This document shows, one piece after another, positions 40,177 to 49,020 of a DNA stretch of 64,000 nucleotides. A model generated the notes under the pieces. The model was not told the DNA's origin. It did not search any database and worked only from the letters and a program-made list of their open reading frames with translations. Every line of letters starts with the position of its first letter. The first letter of the stretch is position 1. Both the position numbers and the translations under genes were made by a program. This DNA is from a virus: IMG/VR virus record IMGVR_UViG_3300008952_000003, positions 62,001 through 126,000 of that record; one strand, 5' to 3'.

Positions 40177-40209
40177 TAGCCGAATAGCTACACAATAAGA
40201 GAATTAATG

Positions 40210-40240
40210 CCCTCCCACTTTTTGTGGGGGGGTTTTGTTT
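40210..40240 (+). terminator. Intrinsic terminator after the capsid gene
   Basis: CCCTCCCAC pairs with GTGGGGGGG (one G-U) around a TTTTT loop, followed by TTTTGTTT. This is a strong intrinsic terminator that isolates the capsid transcript. Confidence 0.85.
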
Positions 40241-40274: not shown

Positions 40275-41543
40275 ATGGCGCTACCGACATTAACCCCCGC
40301 AAGCCAGATGAGTAAAGCGATCTTGCCCCCCACGGGCAATGTGAATAACGTTTCCGCCGCTGTACCATATGGAATGTACACCGGATCGGCTGATTTTCTG
40401 TCCGGCGCCTCTGATCAGGTTGCTTATACTTATAAGAAACTGGGCGGCGATGTTTTGGATATCGAATTGAAGGCGGCAAATGTATATGCGAATTATGAAG
40501 AGGCGGTCTTAGAATATAGCTACCTGATAAATCTACATCAGACAAGAAATGTTCTTTCCGATGTCCTCGGCCAGGCAACTGGAACATTCGATCACCATGG
40601 CGAATCAAAAACGGGCCCAGAAAACGTAAATTTAAAATATCCACGAGTCATGTTCGAATACGCCAGGAGAGTTGGTGATGGAATATCTTTTGAAGCTAAC
40701 GTTGGTGGAACTATTCCGATATACTCGGCCTCCTTTAAATTAAAGGAAAATCAGCAGGACTACAATTTGCAATCAATAATCTCATCCTCAGCCGCCTCTG
40801 GCGTAGATCCAACCGGAAATGCCGTTCCATTTGCTGGAATAGTGGGAGATAAAAGAGTTATTGTAAAGAAAGTTTATTATAAGACGCCTCACGCTATGTG
40901 GAGGTTTTTTGGCTATTTTGGGGGCCTCAATGTGGTTGGAAATCTAAATTATTATGGACAGTTTACAGATGATTCATCATTCGAATTGGTGCCGACTTGG
41001 CAAAACAAACTTCAGGCAATGGCCTTTGAAGATAACTTATGGACAAGACTATCTCATTATTCATATGAACTGAAAAATAACCGATTAAGAATATATCCGA
41101 TTCCTCAAATATTGAGTACTTATTTGTATATGTGGGTCGAATTTTCAGTTATACCAAATAGCTGGGATGAGTCACCAGACTATGATTCTGGTACAGATGG
41201 AATTAACAATTTAAATACGGTTCCTTTTGACAACTTACCTTATAAGAATATCAATGCCATCGGAAAGCAGTGGATCAGGCGCTTCGCTCTTGCACTCTCG
41301 AAGGAGACCCTGGGCCAGATAAGAGGAAAGTTTCAGACAATACCAATTCCAGGAGAATCAGTAACTCTCAATGCTACTGATTTGTTATCGCAGGCAAAGG
41401 ATGAGCAAGAAAAATTGAGAACAGAGTTGAAGGAGATTATGGATCAACTGACATATGTGGAGATGGCAAAAAGTGATGCTGAGAAGGTCGAAGCAGTGGG
41501 ATCAATTCAGAAAACAATCCCAAGGCTGATATATCAAGGATAA
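40275..41543 (+). CDS. Neck protein (gp13-like)
   Basis: A 422-residue protein at the start of the neck module. The segment AYTYKKLGGDVLDIEL plus NYEEAVLEYSYLI (about 52-84) follows the pattern of gp13-type neck proteins of T4-like phages (xRKLGxPLxxVELT..Q..DAI.DAL). The following DVLGQATGTFDHHGESK and the Trp/Tyr-rich central part (RFFGYFGGLN) are not diagnostic to me. gp13 joins the head to the tail together with gp14. It is over 100 residues longer than T4 gp13. Call based on this pattern and the neighbours. Confidence 0.55.
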   Translation: MALPTLTPASQMSKAILPPTGNVNNVSAAVPYGMYTGSADFLSGASDQVAYTYKKLGGDVLDIELKAANVYANYEEAVLEYSYLINLHQTRNVLSDVLGQATGTFDHHGESKTGPENVNLKYPRVMFEYARRVGDGISFEANVGGTIPIYSASFKLKENQQDYNLQSIISSSAASGVDPTGNAVPFAGIVGDKRVIVKKVYYKTPHAMWRFFGYFGGLNVVGNLNYYGQFTDDSSFELVPTWQNKLQAMAFEDNLWTRLSHYSYELKNNRLRIYPIPQILSTYLYMWVEFSVIPNSWDESPDYDSGTDGINNLNTVPFDNLPYKNINAIGKQWIRRFALALSKETLGQIRGKFQTIPIPGESVTLNATDLLSQAKDEQEKLRTELKEIMDQLTYVEMAKSDAEKVEAVGSIQKTIPRLIYQG

Positions 41544-41546
41544 AAC

Positions 41547-42422
41547 ATGAGCAGTGAAAAAGAAAAGTTTCAGGGTTTTCGTCCTTATTTTAAGGAAGAC
41601 CTCTTAGATGACAGTCGAGTTCCATTGAAGGAGATCTCCCTGATGCCATCAACAGTGGAAACTATTGATCTGGCCCTTTTTGATTGGGTTAGTGAAACAA
41701 TGGATTTATATTGCACGACCAATGAGGGATGGAAGAAAGTTCCTATTATATGGTCGATGCCCGAGAGATCATTTCAGATAAAAGACAATAAAGATTTGAG
41801 AAATTCTAATAATATCTTCACGCTCCCCGTGATATCAATCGAGAGAAAATCTTTAATAAAGGATCCAAGCATGAAAGGCGTTGCATGGGCCCATTTACCA
41901 CAATATAATGATCCTCGCGGAGGAACTATAGAGGTATCCAGGAGAATTCAGCAAGATAAGACGTCGAACTTTGCTAATGCCACATCGCAAAGAAAGTTTA
42001 AACAGCAAAATTTCCCATTTAATAACAAGAAAGTAGTCTACGAAACGGTCACAATGCCAATTCCCACATATGTGGTAGCAACTTATTCTTTGGTCATTAG
42101 CACTGAATATCAGCAACAAATGAACGAGATTTTTACTCCATTTTTAACGACCACTGGACAAATTAACAATTTCTTTATACATAGAGACGGGCACAAGTTC
42201 GAAGGATTCATTCAGAATGATCCATCTCTGGATAACAATTTATCAGACTTAGCAGAAAAAGAAAGAAAGTTTAAAACTACGATTGATTTAAAAGTATTGG
42301 GGTATTTGTTGAGCGCCGGCAAGAACGACGAACGCCCCAAAATTACGATCAGGGAGAATGCGGTAGAGGTTCGTATGCCGAGAGAGAGAGTTATATTTGG
42401 GGATAAAAAGGAATATAAATAA
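41547..42422 (+). CDS. Neck/tail-completion protein, possibly gp15-like
   Basis: A 291-residue protein three bases downstream of the gp13-like gene. The segment PTYVVATYSLVISTEYQQQM and NEIFTPFLTTTGQINNFF (about 170-205) resembles the pattern of proximal tail-terminator/sheath-stabiliser proteins, in which a strand is followed by a helix that contacts the tail end. The length is near T4 gp15 (272). The order here would be 13-15-14 rather than 13-14-15. The call is tentative; a neck role is the safer statement. Confidence 0.45.
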   Translation: MSSEKEKFQGFRPYFKEDLLDDSRVPLKEISLMPSTVETIDLALFDWVSETMDLYCTTNEGWKKVPIIWSMPERSFQIKDNKDLRNSNNIFTLPVISIERKSLIKDPSMKGVAWAHLPQYNDPRGGTIEVSRRIQQDKTSNFANATSQRKFKQQNFPFNNKKVVYETVTMPIPTYVVATYSLVISTEYQQQMNEIFTPFLTTTGQINNFFIHRDGHKFEGFIQNDPSLDNNLSDLAEKERKFKTTIDLKVLGYLLSAGKNDERPKITIRENAVEVRMPRERVIFGDKKEYK

Positions 42423-43255
42423 TGGCGGATGATGAAAAAAAGTGGAGCAGACCGTCGAACCCGCCACCGCCTCTTTTTTTGGGCGAGAGCGAAAGAAACT
42501 TAGTTAAGCAAGTTAACGATGAACTGATAGAGCGAGTCATCGGCCAGGCTATCACTTACCTCCCTATTTCCATGGAGAGGACAAATTTTCATCCACTTTA
42601 CGGCGAAGCGATAGAAAAAAGTTTCATGCCCCCAGTTAGAGTCTACGCGCTTGTGGAATTTCCGGGAATAACCACAACAACTGATCACTATGGGTTGGAT
42701 AAGGAATATCCAATAACGGTTAGATTTCACGAAAGAAGGCTTTTTGAAGATCAGGATTTGTACATCCGAGAAGGTGATTATATTCAATATGGAACATCAT
42801 TTTTTGAAATTGTATCTCTGAAGGAGGACCGCCAGCTTTTTGGCCAGGTTGAACATCTTTTCCAGATCGAGGCCAAATGTATAAAGACCAGAAAAGGACT
42901 CATAGATCTGGATGTGCTCCCACCTGAGACGATTTCTGCAATCATTGAAAGTTCGGACTCTGAATCTGCATCAACCTCTGGCGGCGGCCCATCATCAACA
43001 CCCACCCAGGTCGTGAGAGTGTGCTATGTGAATGATGCTACAGTGCTCCTAGCGGCAGATACGTCGCTCAATGGGTTTCTGGGCGTGGGAGAATTGTCAC
43101 TTACCACCGCAGCAGTATATGAAGACGGCCTGCGTCAAAAATTAACAGGACTCCCGGCAACTGGTGATTATTATATCGATGATGGCACCTTGTATAGTGT
43201 TATGGATATTGAGATCGACCAACGTGTTTTATTGGAGGTCTTGACTTTGGTATGA
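42422..43255 (+). CDS. Neck protein (gp14-like)
   Basis: A 277-residue protein; its ATG overlaps the previous TAA (TAATG). Residues 20-160 follow the gp14 pattern: ERNLVKQVNDELIERVIG, YLPISMER, a DPxYGE-like HPLYGEAIEKSF, FHERRLFED, and IREGDYIQYGTSFFEIVSL. gp14 helps seal the filled head. The last 110 residues add a Ser/Gly linker (about 178-195) and a small beta domain not expected from T4. Its stop overlaps the ATG of the YeaH-like gene, so the neck genes and the stress-protein trio share a transcript. Confidence 0.65.
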   Translation: MADDEKKWSRPSNPPPPLFLGESERNLVKQVNDELIERVIGQAITYLPISMERTNFHPLYGEAIEKSFMPPVRVYALVEFPGITTTTDHYGLDKEYPITVRFHERRLFEDQDLYIREGDYIQYGTSFFEIVSLKEDRQLFGQVEHLFQIEAKCIKTRKGLIDLDVLPPETISAIIESSDSESASTSGGGPSSTPTQVVRVCYVNDATVLLAADTSLNGFLGVGELSLTTAAVYEDGLRQKLTGLPATGDYYIDDGTLYSVMDIEIDQRVLLEVLTLV

Positions 43256-44460
43256 GTACTTTTCGTGAACATAAATCAGTTGCAGACCGGTCGGCATCGG
43301 ACAGGAAGAGACACAAACATAAGATCGAGAAAGCACTCCGAGAGGGAATCAAGGATGTAGTCGCCGATGAATCCATTATCGGCCAGGACGGCAAAAAGAG
43401 AATAAAGATTCCAGTAAAAGGAATCAAGGAATATCAATTTATATATGGTGAGAATAAAGACAATAATAAAGCCGGCTCAGCCGGCGATAAACAAGTCAAA
43501 AAGGGTCAAATTTTAAGAAAAAAGCCACGAAAGGGAAAAGGCAAAGCCCCCGGTAAGAAAGGCAGTGACGAGCCGGGAGAAGAATATTACGAAGTAGAAA
43601 TAACTCTAGAAGAGTTGGCAGAATATTTATTTGATAATTTGGATTTGCCTGATTTACAAAAAAAGAAGTTTAGGTTTATTAAAGATAAAAAACTCAAAAG
43701 ACGCGGCTACCGAAAGAAGGGAATCAGAACTAGACTATCGAAGAAAGAAACGATAAAAAGAAAGATAAGAAGAAAAAAGAGAGCCATAGCTTCCGGAGCC
43801 TTTGATCCCGAGGGTGAAGAGAGATTCCCATTCCACCAGGATGACTTGAAATATAAACATATGAAAATAAAGAATGTTGAGAATAGCTCAGCAGTCGTCT
43901 TCTTTCTTATGGATGTATCAGGGTCTATGGACAAAAATAAGAAATATTTAGCACGAAGTTTTTATTTCCTACTGTATCAGTTCTTGAGATATCGATATGA
44001 GAATATTGATGTGGTTTTTATATCTCATTCAACAGAAGCTAAGGAAGTTGGCGAATCGGAATTCTTTGAAAGGGCCACTTCCGGAGGAACTCTAATGTCT
44101 TCAGCCCTCCAGATGGAAAAAGACATCATAGAGAAAAGATATCATCCGTCTTCATGGAATATTTATACTTTTTATTGCGGCGACGGAGAAAATTGGACCA
44201 TTGATAATGCAAAATCAATAGACTTGATAAAGTCGTTGGCAGAGGTTAATCAAATGGTGTGCTATGCAGAAATTAATCCGTTCTTCGCTTCCGGGTCAGA
44301 TAATGATACATTTTTTGTGTTACGCCCGGAAAATGACCCTAATAGTATTTGGTCACGCTTAGGAGTACTTGAAGGTGGGAACATAAAGATGGTAAGAATG
44401 GCCACTCCCGAAGATATCTGGCCATCTTTTCAGAAACTGTTTGGGGGTGATATTTCATGA
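43252..44460 (+). CDS. yeaH: YeaH/DUF444 family protein with VWA domain
   Basis: A 402-residue homologue of bacterial YeaH/YhbH (about 425 residues in E. coli). The N-terminal half is very basic (KKPRKGKGKAPGKKG; KKRRGYRKKG-type stretches), as in the family. The C-terminal half is a von Willebrand A domain with MIDAS motif DVSGSMD (221-227), T280 in SGGT and D311 in CGDGEN. In bacteria the gene travels with prkA and spoVR and is induced in stationary phase or starvation. Here it starts at an ATGA overlap with a neck gene and overlaps the SpoVR gene. A VWA protein beside an AAA+ protein suggests a MoxR-VWA-like working pair. Confidence 0.9.
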   Translation: MSTFREHKSVADRSASDRKRHKHKIEKALREGIKDVVADESIIGQDGKKRIKIPVKGIKEYQFIYGENKDNNKAGSAGDKQVKKGQILRKKPRKGKGKAPGKKGSDEPGEEYYEVEITLEELAEYLFDNLDLPDLQKKKFRFIKDKKLKRRGYRKKGIRTRLSKKETIKRKIRRKKRAIASGAFDPEGEERFPFHQDDLKYKHMKIKNVENSSAVVFFLMDVSGSMDKNKKYLARSFYFLLYQFLRYRYENIDVVFISHSTEAKEVGESEFFERATSGGTLMSSALQMEKDIIEKRYHPSSWNIYTFYCGDGENWTIDNAKSIDLIKSLAEVNQMVCYAEINPFFASGSDNDTFFVLRPENDPNSIWSRLGVLEGGNIKMVRMATPEDIWPSFQKLFGGDIS

Positions 44461-45758
44461 GGGACTGGACTGTAAAAGAATTACAAAAATGGGATAAAGA
44501 AATTTGCAAAATAGCAAAAGAAAAATATGATCTTGATTGGTTCCCAATAGAATATGAGATATTGGATTATCATGAGATGTTGAGTTCTATGGCGTACAGT
44601 GGCCTGCCGACTCACTATCGACATTGGTCATTCGGAAAAGCGTTCGAGAGGACCTCTACTCGCTACAACTTGGGAATGGAGGGTCTGCCATACGAGATGA
44701 TCATTAATAGCGATCCTAGCATTGCCTATTTGATGCTTGAGAATCCAATGAGTATACATTTACTAACAATGGCACACTGTGTGGGTCATTCTGATTTTTT
44801 TAAAAATAATCGCATGTTTAAAGATACGGATCCTGCAAATATCATATCTAAATTTAAATCAGCATCAAAAAGAGTAAGGGATTATATCGAAGATCCAAGT
44901 ATTGGAATTGATAAAGTAGAGGCAATGTTGGATGCATGCCACTCAATACAGTATCAAGTACAAAGGACTCCTGGAATAATAAGAGATGCGGATACTGACA
45001 AAAAAGAAACAGAAAATAATAGTAAAAAAATAATAAATGAATTATTTCATTTCGAAAACTTGAAGGATTATAATTTGCTTGGCTTCATAAAAGAGAACTC
45101 TCGCAATTTGGAGGACTGGCAAAGAGATTTGGTGGGGATGGTTGAGAGGAGGTCTCAATATTTTATTCCACAAGCGAAAACAAAGATCATGAACGAAGGC
45201 TGGGCAGTCACAATTCATGAAAAGATCATGAACGATTTAAAACTACCAGACAAATATCAAATAGCTTTTTTGAAATCGCATAATCAAGTTGTGAGGCCGG
45301 TAGTTGGCAGAATTAATCCATATCACCTTGGATATAGCATGTTCAAGAAGATAGAGAAGCAGCGCGGATTTGAGGAGTGTAAGCTGGTTCGAGAGACGCA
45401 TGACGACGAGGCTTTTATAAGGAAATACTTAGATGAAGAATTGTGCAGAGAGCTAAATCTATTCAGTTATTCCTACAATAGACTGGGAAGAAAATACTCA
45501 ATTAGTGATATTTCTGACAAAGAAGGGTGGAAAAGCGTGAGAGACGCCCTAATTAGCAATGTGGGACTTAACAGCGTGCCCGTTGTTTATGTCGATAAGT
45601 TTAATAAGAAAATGAATATCCTTTATTTGAAACACGAGCATGACGGCAGAGATCTGGAGATCAAATATGCAAACAAGGTGTATGATCATATTAGATTTTT
45701 GTGGGATGATGATATAATATTTACTTCCATTTTGGAAGGTGAACTATGGGAATTTTAA
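44457..45758 (+). CDS. spoVR: SpoVR/YcgB family protein
   Basis: A 433-residue member of the SpoVR family. Diagnostic segments are HWSFGKAFE (56-64), GLPYEMIINSDPSIAYLMLE (76-95) and AHCVGHSDFFKNN (106-118), the last with the conserved His pair. Later PYHLGYSMFKKIE also fits the family. E. coli YcgB is about 510 residues, so this copy is shorter. In Bacillus SpoVR affects spore cortex formation; in Gram-negatives its function is open. The start overlaps the YeaH stop (ATGA), which argues for coupled translation and a functional link. Confidence 0.92.
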   Translation: MRDWTVKELQKWDKEICKIAKEKYDLDWFPIEYEILDYHEMLSSMAYSGLPTHYRHWSFGKAFERTSTRYNLGMEGLPYEMIINSDPSIAYLMLENPMSIHLLTMAHCVGHSDFFKNNRMFKDTDPANIISKFKSASKRVRDYIEDPSIGIDKVEAMLDACHSIQYQVQRTPGIIRDADTDKKETENNSKKIINELFHFENLKDYNLLGFIKENSRNLEDWQRDLVGMVERRSQYFIPQAKTKIMNEGWAVTIHEKIMNDLKLPDKYQIAFLKSHNQVVRPVVGRINPYHLGYSMFKKIEKQRGFEECKLVRETHDDEAFIRKYLDEELCRELNLFSYSYNRLGRKYSISDISDKEGWKSVRDALISNVGLNSVPVVYVDKFNKKMNILYLKHEHDGRDLEIKYANKVYDHIRFLWDDDIIFTSILEGELWEF

Positions 45759-45759
45759 G

Positions 45760-47694
45760 ATGACAAAAACAAATGAATTTTTAGATATCGTTGAGAAGAG
45801 AAGCAAGGAAAAAAAGAGAAGTAAGTTTTCTGGTGCTTTTTCCGACTATTTGGATTTGGTGGAAGAAGACAGAGGAATTTCCATCTTGGCTCACAGAAGG
45901 CTATATGATACAATAAAATCCTACGGAATAACAAGAATGACGCCAGATGACGGCCGCTGCGCAAATCTATTTAATGGCGAAAAAATAAGAACCTACGACT
46001 ATTTTCAGTCCAATTTCTTTGGTATGGAGAGGTCCTTGGCTAAAATTATGAGATATTTGCACTCTGCGGCCATGCGAGGCGAGGAGAGCAAGCAAGTTCT
46101 TCTTCTGCTGGGCCCAGTTGGGGCTGGAAAATCTGCTCTAATCGAACATATCAAACGCGCTTTGGAGTCTGCAGGCTCATTTTATCAAATAGGTGGTTGT
46201 CCGATTCAAGAGGAGCCGCTACATTTGGTTCCGAGGAGCTTGAGGGAGGAATTTAAGAATATTTATGGGATCTCGATTGAGGGAGATTTGTGTCCCGTCT
46301 GTCGACATAATTTGCTAAATGAGTACGACGGTGATTATTTAAACATGCCAGTGGTTGAGACGACTTTCTCAATAAGGGGTCGCAGAGGTATCGGAGTTGT
46401 TCCGCCGATGGACGCAAATACTCAAGATACCAGCATCTTGATAGGCTCTGAGGATATTTCTAAGTTAGATTTGTATCCCGAAGACGACCCGAGAGCCCTG
46501 AGTTTTAATGGGGCCTTTAATGTCGGAAATCGAGGGATTGTTGAGTTTGTAGAGGTATTCAAAAATGAGATAGAATTTCTCCACACCATGATCACAGCAA
46601 CGCAAGAGAAGGCTATTCCAAGCCCCGGAAAGGGCGCCATGATTTATTTCGATGGGGTTATATTAGCTCACTGCAATGAGGCAGAATGGAATAAGTTTAA
46701 ATCAGAGAACACCAATGAGGCTATTCTAGATAGAATTGTTAGAGTGAATGTTCCATATTGCCTTGAGGTCACAGAAGAACAGAAGATATATCAAAAAATG
46801 CTCGATGAGTCTGATTTTGATGCACATATTGCACCACACACGCTTGAAATTGCAGCAATGTTCGCTGTACTATCCCGTCTAAAGATCTCCAACAAGGTTG
46901 ATCCCATTACAAAGATGAAGATTTACAATGGGGAGGAAATTGTTGAGAAGGGATATATTAAGAAAATCGATATTAATGATCTCAGAGAAGAGGCGAGAGA
47001 TGAGGGAATGACTGGCCTCTCAACTAGATTCATAATGAAATCAATCGACGCCGCTTTGGCCGATTCGGATAGAAATATGGTTACTCCTATATCAATTCGA
47101 GATGCTCTGGTGAAACAAGTCAAAGAACAAGTTGTCGTCGAAGAGCTAAGAGAAAAGTATCTATCATTTCTCCAGAAAGAGCTTCACGATGAATATTTGA
47201 GAATACTAGAAAAAGAAATAACCAAAGCTTTTGTTTCTGCGTATAAAGAGCAGGCTGAATCACTCTTTGACAATTATCTTGATCATGCTGAAGCGTATGT
47301 CAACGCCACAAAGGTGAAGGATAACATCACCGGAGAGGAGATGGTCGCTGATGAGGAATTTTTGTGCTCCATTGAAGAGCAAATTGGTATTGTCGGCTCG
47401 GCACGAGAAAACTTCAGAGCAGATATAACTGCTTATATGTTTGCCAAGTTGAGAAGAAAAGAGAAAATTGACTGGAGAGCATACGGCCCGCTTAAAGAAG
47501 CAATCGAGAACAAACTATTGGATTCGGTGAGAGACATATCCAGAATTGTGACTAAATCAAAGTCCAGAGACAATAAGCAGAAAAAGAAATACAATGAGAT
47601 GGTCAAGACTCTCATTGAGGACTATGGATATAGCGAAGATTCTGCAAATGAAATTATTAAATATGCCTCGAATAATCTCTGGCGCGATAGCTAA
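45760..47694 (+). CDS. prkA: PrkA/YeaG family AAA+ protein (serine kinase)
   Basis: A 644-residue PrkA homologue, the same length as E. coli YeaG. I choose the ATG at 45760, just after the SpoVR stop; a GTG at 45739 would add seven residues. FFGMERSLAKIMRYLHSAA leads to the P-loop LGPVGAGKSA (117-126). GDLCPVCRHNLL is the family's Cys motif, and MIYFDGVILAHCNEAEW the Walker B/sensor region. The C-terminal third is helical, as in PrkA's kinase-like part. PrkA has been described as a serine protein kinase and, in Bacillus, as an ATP-dependent protease. It is the last gene before a terminator. Confidence 0.93.
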   Translation: MTKTNEFLDIVEKRSKEKKRSKFSGAFSDYLDLVEEDRGISILAHRRLYDTIKSYGITRMTPDDGRCANLFNGEKIRTYDYFQSNFFGMERSLAKIMRYLHSAAMRGEESKQVLLLLGPVGAGKSALIEHIKRALESAGSFYQIGGCPIQEEPLHLVPRSLREEFKNIYGISIEGDLCPVCRHNLLNEYDGDYLNMPVVETTFSIRGRRGIGVVPPMDANTQDTSILIGSEDISKLDLYPEDDPRALSFNGAFNVGNRGIVEFVEVFKNEIEFLHTMITATQEKAIPSPGKGAMIYFDGVILAHCNEAEWNKFKSENTNEAILDRIVRVNVPYCLEVTEEQKIYQKMLDESDFDAHIAPHTLEIAAMFAVLSRLKISNKVDPITKMKIYNGEEIVEKGYIKKIDINDLREEARDEGMTGLSTRFIMKSIDAALADSDRNMVTPISIRDALVKQVKEQVVVEELREKYLSFLQKELHDEYLRILEKEITKAFVSAYKEQAESLFDNYLDHAEAYVNATKVKDNITGEEMVADEEFLCSIEEQIGIVGSARENFRADITAYMFAKLRRKEKIDWRAYGPLKEAIENKLLDSVRDISRIVTKSKSRDNKQKKKYNEMVKTLIEDYGYSEDSANEIIKYASNNLWRDS

Positions 47695-47721: not shown

Positions 47722-47759
47722 AAGCCCCTTATTTCATTTAGAAAAGGGGCTTCTTTGTG
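47722..47759 (+). terminator. Intrinsic terminator after prkA
   Basis: AAGCCCCTT (47722-47730) pairs perfectly with AAGGGGCTT (47744-47752), followed by CTTTGTGTCTTTT. It closes the neck-YeaH-SpoVR-PrkA operon. The remaining 130 bases before the next gene hold a weak AT-rich leader with ATAAGGAGAAAATA as ribosome site; I saw no clear promoter motif there. Confidence 0.8.
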
Positions 47760-47889: not shown

Positions 47890-49020
47890 ATGGCTAAAAC
47901 AAGAATTAATGTCCGTCAGGTCGACCTGGAACTTGCAGGTGGAGCCTCGGACTATGAAACAATGGCAGAAGCAGTCGCCGCAGAGGGCGCAGCCCTCGTT
48001 GGTAAGCTGGTTCCTGCTAAGTTTGACCCAAAATATTTGGGTGTTAGTCTTTCTGTCGCCGATTATGACGGTGCAGCATCTGACTATACAATCGTAAACA
48101 AGGGAGTACTGACCTCCCTGTCAGCCTCAATCACGGCTACCACAGACCTCCACATGAGCTACCTGAACGCCGATTATAATGCCCTCCTGACGGCTTCGGC
48201 TGAACGTGCAGCACTTCAGGCTGATATTGATCAGAACGAAGCAGACGCAGACGCAGCAATCGCAGCACTTCAAGCTGACGTTGATCAGAACGAAACAGAC
48301 GGCGATACCGATCGCGCAGCAATTCGCTCTGAATTCGCAGCAGCAGATGCAATCCAGTGGAAGAACGTGCTAGGCGCCGTAGGCGCAGTTCAAGCTGACG
48401 TTGATCAGAACGAAACAGACGGCGATACCGATCGCGCAGCAATTCGCTCTGAATTCGCAGCAGCAGATACAGCAATTCTGCTCCAAATCGCTACGAACCT
48501 AACAAACGGTACCGCAGCCCTCGCAGCAGTTCAAGCTGACGTTGACGGTAACGAAGCAGACGCTGACGCAGCAGACGCAGTTCTCCAGGGTCAGATTACA
48601 TCTAACGATGCCGACATCGCTACGAACGCCGCCGACATCGCAACAGAGACAGCACGCGCTCTTGCAGCAGAAGCAGTTAATGCTGGCTTGATTAGTGCAG
48701 AAGCGACTCGCGCTACTGCAGCAGAAGGTGTACTCACCACAGATGTGTTGGAACTCAACGCTGATGTCCTCGCACTTCACGGAAGACACTTCAGAGCAAG
48801 TAGTGTTGTAGTTGCAGGAGGCGCCCATGGTGTTTCTGTTTCTCCAGCAGACGCAGGCTCGTTGCAAGTATTTGTTAACGGTCTACTTAAAGTGGCTGGA
48901 GACGATTACACTGTAACTGCAGACGGAAACGGTTCTGTTACTGACGTTAGTGTTCTTGGTTGTGAAGCAGGTGATGATGTCACCGTCATGGGTCAAGGAT
49001 ACGTGTCTCTAACATCGTAA
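47890..49020 (+). CDS. Repetitive fibre, possible fibritin/whisker-like protein
   Basis: A 376-residue Ala/Asp-rich protein. Residues 1-95 form an N-terminal domain. Residues 105-285 are coiled-coil-like repeats (LQADVDQNETDGDTDRAAIR, LQADIDQNEADADAAI, AVQADVDGNEADADAADAV) as in trimeric stalks. The last 90 residues are a beta tip (GRHFRASSVVVAGG ... MGQGYVSLTS). Its place between neck and sheath genes and its trimeric-stalk style recall T4 fibritin (wac), but there is no sequence match I can show. Codons are biased as in the capsid gene (CGC/CGT arginine), so it is probably abundant. A strong terminator follows. Confidence 0.6.
   Translation: MAKTRINVRQVDLELAGGASDYETMAEAVAAEGAALVGKLVPAKFDPKYLGVSLSVADYDGAASDYTIVNKGVLTSLSASITATTDLHMSYLNADYNALLTASAERAALQADIDQNEADADAAIAALQADVDQNETDGDTDRAAIRSEFAAADAIQWKNVLGAVGAVQADVDQNETDGDTDRAAIRSEFAAADTAILLQIATNLTNGTAALAAVQADVDGNEADADAADAVLQGQITSNDADIATNAADIATETARALAAEAVNAGLISAEATRATAAEGVLTTDVLELNADVLALHGRHFRASSVVVAGGAHGVSVSPADAGSLQVFVNGLLKVAGDDYTVTADGNGSVTDVSVLGCEAGDDVTVMGQGYVSLTS
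48269..48468 (+). repeat. Perfect 80-base direct repeat in the fibre gene
   Basis: Bases 48269-48348 and 48389-48468 are identical and lie exactly 120 bases apart (40 codons). They encode a repeated stalk segment. Exact identity including third positions points to a recent duplication or gene conversion. Confidence 0.9.

What the first reader, a model, noticed from the sequence alone, without database searches (positions are those of the whole stretch)
43252..47694. A complete PrkA-YeaH-SpoVR trio carried by a phage
Three adjacent, overlapping genes match YeaH/DUF444 (MIDAS DVSGSMD), SpoVR/YcgB (AHCVGHSDFFKNN) and PrkA/YeaG (LGPVGAGKSA, 644 residues). In bacteria these three are a conserved set induced by starvation and stationary phase and used in Bacillus sporulation, yet their molecular task is unsolved. 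Here all three key motifs are intact, and the gene order (yeaH-spoVR-prkA) differs from the usual bacterial order (prkA-yeaH-spoVR), so this is not a fresh capture of a host operon. I infer selected function: an AAA+ plus VWA pair, like MoxR systems, with SpoVR as target or partner, used to keep starved or dormant hosts productive or to process virion proteins.
Basis: partly seen in the sequence, partly recalled or inferred. Interest (0 to 1): 0.95.

Follow-up and report, generated by a model that had tools for sequence, protein, structure and literature searches.

The report
Phage-borne PrkA-YeaH-SpoVR stress trio
A large group of uncultured T4-like viruses of bacteria carries, as one inseparable three-gene block in its own gene order, a complete bacterial starvation/sporulation gene set whose job has long been unknown, which suggests that the three proteins form a single machine that phages use during infection.

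Summary
The trio is real: DUF444/YeaH (43252-44460), SpoVR (44457-45758) and PrkA (45760-47694) in a 193-kb T4-like phage record. It follows a neck gene with ATGA overlaps and ends at a terminator-like hairpin that recurs in relatives. Starting from any of the three genes, the other two are present, unbroken and in order yeaH-spoVR-prkA on every IMG/VR contig with room (140 of 149 re-scanned loci; the 9 others stop at contig ends). Bacteria have prkA-yeaH-spoVR in all 74 complete loci. The phage copies form one clade (PrkA and SpoVR trees, support 100), at most 44% identical to bacterial SpoVR, under purifying selection, with key motifs kept. They are old and selected, but accessory: close relatives lack the block at this site, and a second phage group carries it away from its head genes. 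Thermus phages hold the same order by a separate origin (AU p=0.0005); megaphages hold the bacterial order; a Ralstonia jumbo phage paper lists SpoVR and PrkA. So phage carriage is not new; the old, indivisible, rearranged phage lineage appears undescribed in the papers I could search. Best reading: an AAA+/MIDAS remodelling machine with SpoVR, aimed at the host rather than at virion assembly.

The parts
43252..44460 (+). yeaH/yhbH-like gene (DUF444, VWA domain), 402 aa
   Evidence: Pfam DUF444 E=2.5e-109; best NCBIfam model spore_yhbH, below its cut-off; predicted VWA fold
43912..43926 (+). MIDAS motif D221-x-S-x-S of YeaH (with T280 and D311 further on)
   Evidence: conserved in 76 phage and 77 bacterial copies
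44457..45758 (+). spoVR gene, 433 aa
   Evidence: Pfam SpoVR E=1.2e-118; AlphaFold2 model pLDDT 88, pTM 0.87
44775..44789 (+). SpoVR H107-x-x-G-H111, on predicted helix 98-117
   Evidence: H107 and H111 invariant in 79 phage and bacterial sequences; helix from the model
45192..45218 (+). SpoVR N246-E247-G248-W-A250...H254, on predicted helix 243-260; a megaphage copy (L086) has an intein-like insert exactly between NEG and C
   Evidence: invariant positions; insert seen in alignment A1
45760..47694 (+). prkA gene, 644 aa: PrkA AAA+ domain plus C-terminal PrkA domain
   Evidence: Pfam AAA_PrkA 5.4e-144 and PrkA 5.7e-79; solved relatives 9xip/9xiq/9xir
46111..46134 (+). Walker A motif G118-P-V-G-A-G-K124-S125 of PrkA
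   Evidence: conserved in 72 phage and 68 bacterial copies
42422..43255 (+). neck-region gene, 277 aa, overlapping yeaH by 4 nt; about 110 aa longer than homologues in trio-less relatives
   Evidence: lengths 272-309 aa in 31 of 32 trio carriers against 162-180 aa in most trio-less relatives
40275..41543 (+). head-tail adaptor (Ad2-like) gene at the start of the same unit
   Evidence: phrog_211 E=1.9e-11 over part of the profile
41547..42422 (+). gene of unknown function in the same unit, conserved in relatives
   Evidence: tblastn synteny
47722..47752 (+). terminator-like hairpin after prkA (AAGCCCCTT...AAGGGGCTT)
   Evidence: fold z-score -2.8; hairpins of different sequence at the same place in most relatives
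40209..40233 (+). terminator-like hairpin after the capsid gene, upstream end of the unit that ends with prkA
   Evidence: consensus scan

Best explanation
The block encodes one three-part ATP-driven remodelling machine that phages keep as an indivisible cassette. PrkA is an AAA+ ring ATPase. YeaH is its MIDAS (VWA) adaptor, which docks a client through a metal-bridged acidic contact, as in Rea1/Midasin or NorQ-NorD. SpoVR is the obligate third part, with a probable two-helix metal site: either the dedicated client that the ATPase loads or resets, or the RNA/protein-binding effector that it delivers. In this phage the block is read together with head-completion genes and so is probably made late. 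It most likely acts on the host, holding a stressed, slowly growing cell in a quiescent but productive state, as YeaG/YeaH do in nitrogen-starved E. coli, rather than on the virion. Shown: the genes, their coupling, motif integrity, clade, selection, indivisibility and accessory distribution. Inferred: complex formation, the division of labour, late timing, host target.
For: Indivisible: 140 of 149 re-scanned loci hold all three in one order and the other 9 stop at contig ends; first scan 80 of 80 wherever the contig reaches. Translational coupling and common hairpin end. Key residues kept under purifying selection. Own clade. Bacterial PrkA oligomerises with ATP but has negligible kinase or protease activity (PMC13001217), which favours remodelling. 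YeaH's VWA fold matches Rea1-MIDAS and NorQD. YeaG and YeaH act together as a metabolic brake in starved E. coli (PMC10954441); SpoVR cross-links to RNA in B. subtilis (PMC12456014). Host-directed rather than virion-directed: absent at this site from phages with Gp23 about 83% identical, located far from head genes in group 2.
Against: No complex, client or host is shown. In group 1 and in Thermus phage Lalka8 the trio does sit among head genes. E. coli and Bacillus manage with spoVR unlinked, so linkage is not needed for function everywhere. The metal site is a residue pattern on predicted helices; no solved fold resembles SpoVR.
Confidence: 0.5

Rival explanations
1. The trio remodels or processes virion proteins during assembly, for example the extended neck protein or the variable appendage gene that follows prkA.
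For: In group 1 the trio is coupled to a neck gene, and the neck protein is about 110 aa longer in 31 of 32 trio carriers; in Thermus phage Lalka8 the trio lies between a minor head protein and TerL.
Against: Group-2 T4-like phages carry it far from head genes. L009 has the trio with a short neck protein and L102/L104 have the long neck protein and a large insert without the trio. Close relatives assemble without it at this site.
Confidence: 0.2
2. The phage trio interferes with the host's own PrkA/YeaH/SpoVR system (decoy subunits or forced activation), for instance to stop the host from entering dormancy or sporulating.
For: The same proteins drive starvation and sporulation responses in bacteria (PMC13001217, PMC12456014, PMC10954441).
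Against: All three active-site sets are kept and all three genes are always present, more than a decoy needs. Whether the host has a trio is unknown.
Confidence: 0.15
3. The trio is an anti-phage or superinfection-exclusion system carried by the phage.
For: Accessory, patchy distribution and a cargo site between neck genes and sheath that can hold other genes.
Against: No match in PADLOC; the relatives are starvation and sporulation genes.
Confidence: 0.06
4. A recent or neutral capture from a host operon.
For: Presence is patchy among close relatives.
Against: Own clade with long stem, rearranged order, low pN/pS, no broken copies in 149 re-scanned loci, presence across phages whose Gp23 is only 46-49% identical.
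Confidence: 0.02

Closest known systems
Bacterial prkA-yeaH(yhbH)-spoVR locus (Clostridia, Myxococcota, Alphaproteobacteria, Flammeovirga; yeaGH in E. coli)
   Same: the same three families, with the same motifs, side by side
   Different: order prkA-yeaH-spoVR in 74 of 74 loci; SpoVR at most 44% identical; phage copies form a separate clade
Thermus phages phiYS40, YS40_Isch, phiLo, MN1, Lalka8
   Same: the trio in phages, in order yeaH-spoVR-prkA
   Different: separate origin by tree test; only 20-22% SpoVR identity; YS40_Isch has an extra gene between spoVR and prkA
Megaphages LR745206, LR756502, LR756504, LR756511 (595-642 kb)
   Same: all three genes in a phage record
   Different: bacterial order where adjacent; two copies branch with Pseudomonadota; L086 SpoVR carries an intein-like insert
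Ralstonia jumbo phage RsoM2USA (PMC8504454)
   Same: lists SpoVR (ORF28) and PrkA (ORF30)
   Different: SpoVR 56% identical to Vibrio, a much more host-like copy; YeaH is not named in the text
MoxR-type AAA+/VWA pairs and Rea1/Midasin
   Same: AAA+ ATPase paired with a VWA/MIDAS protein; YeaH's fold matches Rea1-MIDAS and NorQD
   Different: PrkA is not a MoxR/dynein-type AAA by profile and has its own C-terminal domain; SpoVR has no counterpart there

Membership tests
PrkA family | PrkA-type AAA+ domain and PrkA C-terminal domain, Walker A kept | tested here: met
   Pfam PF08298 5.4e-144 and PF06798 5.7e-79, full length; Walker A. Below the NCBIfam equivalog cut-off (409 of 576 bits)
PrkA family | ATPase, kinase or protease activity | not testable with these tools
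   literature on bacterial PrkA conflicts: protease reported for B. subtilis, negligible kinase and protease activity for B. anthracis (PMC13001217)
YeaH/YhbH (DUF444) family | DUF444 over nearly the whole protein and a MIDAS D-x-S-x-S...T...D | tested here: met
   PF04285 2.5e-109; D221, S223, S225, T280, D311 conserved
SpoVR family | SpoVR domain over nearly the whole protein with HxxGH and NEGxA motifs | tested here: met
   PF04293 1.2e-118, profile 1-405 of 407; invariant residues
MoxR AAA+/VWA systems | MoxR-type AAA+ domain | tested here: not met
   AAA_5 only at E=0.0069, below cut-off, and no AAA_3 in the list
MoxR AAA+/VWA systems | VWA/MIDAS partner encoded beside the AAA+ gene | tested here: met
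   gene block and VWA fold; but here spoVR lies between them
Gluzincin zinc peptidases (for SpoVR) | catalytic Glu in HExxH and peptidase fold | tested here: not met
   position 108 is C in phages and V in bacteria; no PDB fold match at E<=0.001
Known anti-phage defence systems | match to a PADLOC model | tested here: not met
   none at E<=0.01

The most novel reading that the evidence does not exclude
PrkA, YeaH and SpoVR are obligate parts of one machine, with SpoVR (no resembling fold in the PDB, a probable two-helix metal site) as its dedicated client or effector. T4-like phages have kept it as a unit through deep divergence to control the physiology of non-growing hosts, and the same permuted gene order arose at least twice in phages.
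Probability: 0.35. Interest if true: 0.82.

Novelty: new variant of a known kind. Interest (0 to 1): 0.62.

Why it matters
The three families are widespread in bacteria and tied to sporulation and starvation, but their joint task is unsolved; in E. coli yeaGH stands without spoVR beside it. A phage lineage that is never seen with fewer than all three says that they work as one unit, and it gives a compact, co-expressed version to purify and test. It also points to phages equipped for slow or starved hosts.

Tried and rejected
T4-type late promoters (TATAAATA): over the whole record not enriched against the reversed-pattern control (39 against 44 hits), so late timing rests on gene context only. 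An apparent GroEL beside prkA in group 2 was a single-linkage clustering artefact: the 441-aa neighbour has no Pfam match, and GroEL lies elsewhere and also in a trio-less record. No constant fourth gene follows prkA in group 2 (PhoH, cysteine-synthase-like or unknown). Enterobacter phage LAU1 (yeaG, yeaH) and Bacillus phage CM1 (a yhbH-like gene alone) are partial sets outside this clade. SpoVR as an active zinc peptidase: no fold match and no catalytic Glu. The YeaH model is only moderate (pLDDT 69). A DNA-level search found no near relative in the phage collection. In my scripts I called the IMG/VR clade 'marine'; no tool showed its habitats, so I do not claim it.
Full report
OBSERVATION. 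The window is part of a 193,157-bp virus record. Neighbours are the Gp23 capsid gene, an Ad2-like head-tail adaptor, two further genes, then the trio, then two variable genes, sheath and tube. The neck-region gene 42422-43255 overlaps yeaH by 4 nt, yeaH overlaps spoVR by 4 nt, and the spoVR stop is one base from the prkA ATG. A terminator-like hairpin follows prkA (47722-47752, fold z=-2.8). Hairpins with different stems stand at the same place in most of 15 relatives checked, L004 and L009 being the weak cases. So the trio closes a transcription unit that probably begins after the terminator-like hairpin at 40209-40233.

DISTRIBUTION. A SpoVR scan of IMG/VR found 120 relatives; the best 80 carry yeaH-spoVR-prkA in that order wherever the contig reaches. 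Scans from PrkA and from YeaH gave 149 further loci, many of them on the same contigs: 140 hold all three in order, and the other 9 stop at contig ends. No copy among the 149 is split by a frame break. Two groups exist. Group 1 (as in the window) has the trio between neck genes and sheath. Group 2 is also T4-like by Gp23 in its longer records, but has the trio elsewhere (gp23 at 19 kb and the trio near 97 kb in the L039 record), beside PhoH, cysteine-synthase-like, helicase and unknown genes. Sister phages without the trio at this site exist: their neck genes run straight into the sheath, including L106 and L108 whose Gp23 is 83% identical to the window's, and a 161,719-bp record has no PrkA anywhere. 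The other trio-less records are fragments and could carry it elsewhere. On the Gp23 tree, presence at this site is patchy.

ORIGIN. Bacterial loci show prkA-yeaH-spoVR in 74 of 74 complete cases, so the phage order is derived. In the PrkA tree 26, and in the SpoVR tree 27, T4-like phage copies form one clade with support 100, within a broad set of Clostridia, Myxococcota, Alphaproteobacteria and Flammeovirga and away from the E. coli and Mesorhizobium side. The nearest bacteria are 35-44% identical in SpoVR. Thermus phage copies are separate; an AU test rejects one clade with the T4-like copies (p=0.00046), so the permuted order probably arose twice, unless Thermus hosts already have it, which I did not check. 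Two megaphage copies fall with Pseudomonadota, in bacterial order. The trees used the quick method, with long branches among the Thermus and one megaphage copy. PrkA and Gp23 identities correlate (r=0.87): mostly vertical descent down to 46-49% Gp23 identity, with one clear mismatch (L051 record: PrkA 74% to the window but 65-67% to its Gp23 neighbours), which suggests phage-to-phage transfer. pN/pS is 0.06-0.22 for the trio against five relatives, with PrkA among the most constrained genes of the region (pS is near saturation, so these are rough).

MECHANISM. Walker A, MIDAS and the SpoVR H/E residues are conserved across phage and bacterial copies. PrkA's AAA+ domain is its own family, nearest outside it to Lon AAA+; in B. 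anthracis it oligomerises with ATP and has negligible kinase or protease activity (PMC13001217). YeaH's VWA fold matches Rea1/Midasin and NorQD MIDAS domains among many VWA folds. SpoVR gives a confident model (pLDDT 88, pTM 0.87) with no PDB fold match; its only significant match among viral models is a 617-residue protein, the length of phiLo SpoVR. Its invariant H107/H111 and E247/H254 lie on two predicted helices, a layout like a zinc-peptidase site without the catalytic glutamate; this is a pattern, not a measured site. SpoVR cross-links to RNA in sporulating B. subtilis (PMC12456014), and YeaG/YeaH act as a metabolic brake in starved E. coli (PMC10954441). I therefore favour an ATP-driven remodelling machine acting on the host, made together with head genes in group 1. 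The virion rival is kept at 0.2: in group 1 the neck protein is about 110 residues longer when the trio is present (31 of 32), but L009 (trio, short neck protein) and L102/L104 (long neck protein, other insert, no trio) separate the two features.

NOVELTY. Phage carriage of these genes is on record (phiYS40 and other Thermus phages; RsoM2USA, PMC8504454; megaphages), and PHROGs holds them as families mostly of unknown function. What I did not find described in the open-access library is the large T4-like lineage with an indivisible, rearranged trio. Hence: new variant of a known kind. The nearest cultured phages by terminase (Flavobacterium phage immuto, 48.5%) and capsid (Microcystis phage Mel-JY01, 37%) are not in the trio hit lists, and the host remains unknown.

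Noticed in passing
L037-L065 (e.g. L039:8484-8777, L051:2317-3300, L044:6293-6727): Many unrelated small proteins beside the group-2 trio begin with one N-terminal motif, MKITKxxLRxIIKEE: 47 of 1178 ORFs against 2 expected from shuffling. It may be a shared targeting tag, such as a capsid-targeting sequence.
   Followed up: partly
window 42422-43255 and homologues: The neck-region protein has a C-terminal extension of about 110 aa in trio carriers and in relatives with another large insert at the same place, but not in most trio-less relatives.
   Followed up: partly
window 47890-49020; L102:4084-8391; L021:13340-19435; L002:13439-15934: The stretch between neck genes and sheath holds a very variable gene (376 to 2031 aa, fibre- or appendage-like) in these phages: a cargo site.
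   Followed up: no
L086:7950-9854 (megaphage LR756504): SpoVR carries an insert of about 130 aa with intein-like ends exactly inside the conserved NEG/C-A motif.
   Followed up: no
G000:C1:153279-154772, outside the window: The phage encodes a GroEL-type chaperonin, as do 10 of 22 related records searched, trio-less G195 included.
   Followed up: partly
L089:7725-8642 (Bacillus phage CM1): A lone YhbH-like VWA gene annotated 'sporulation protein', with no PrkA or SpoVR annotated nearby.
   Followed up: no
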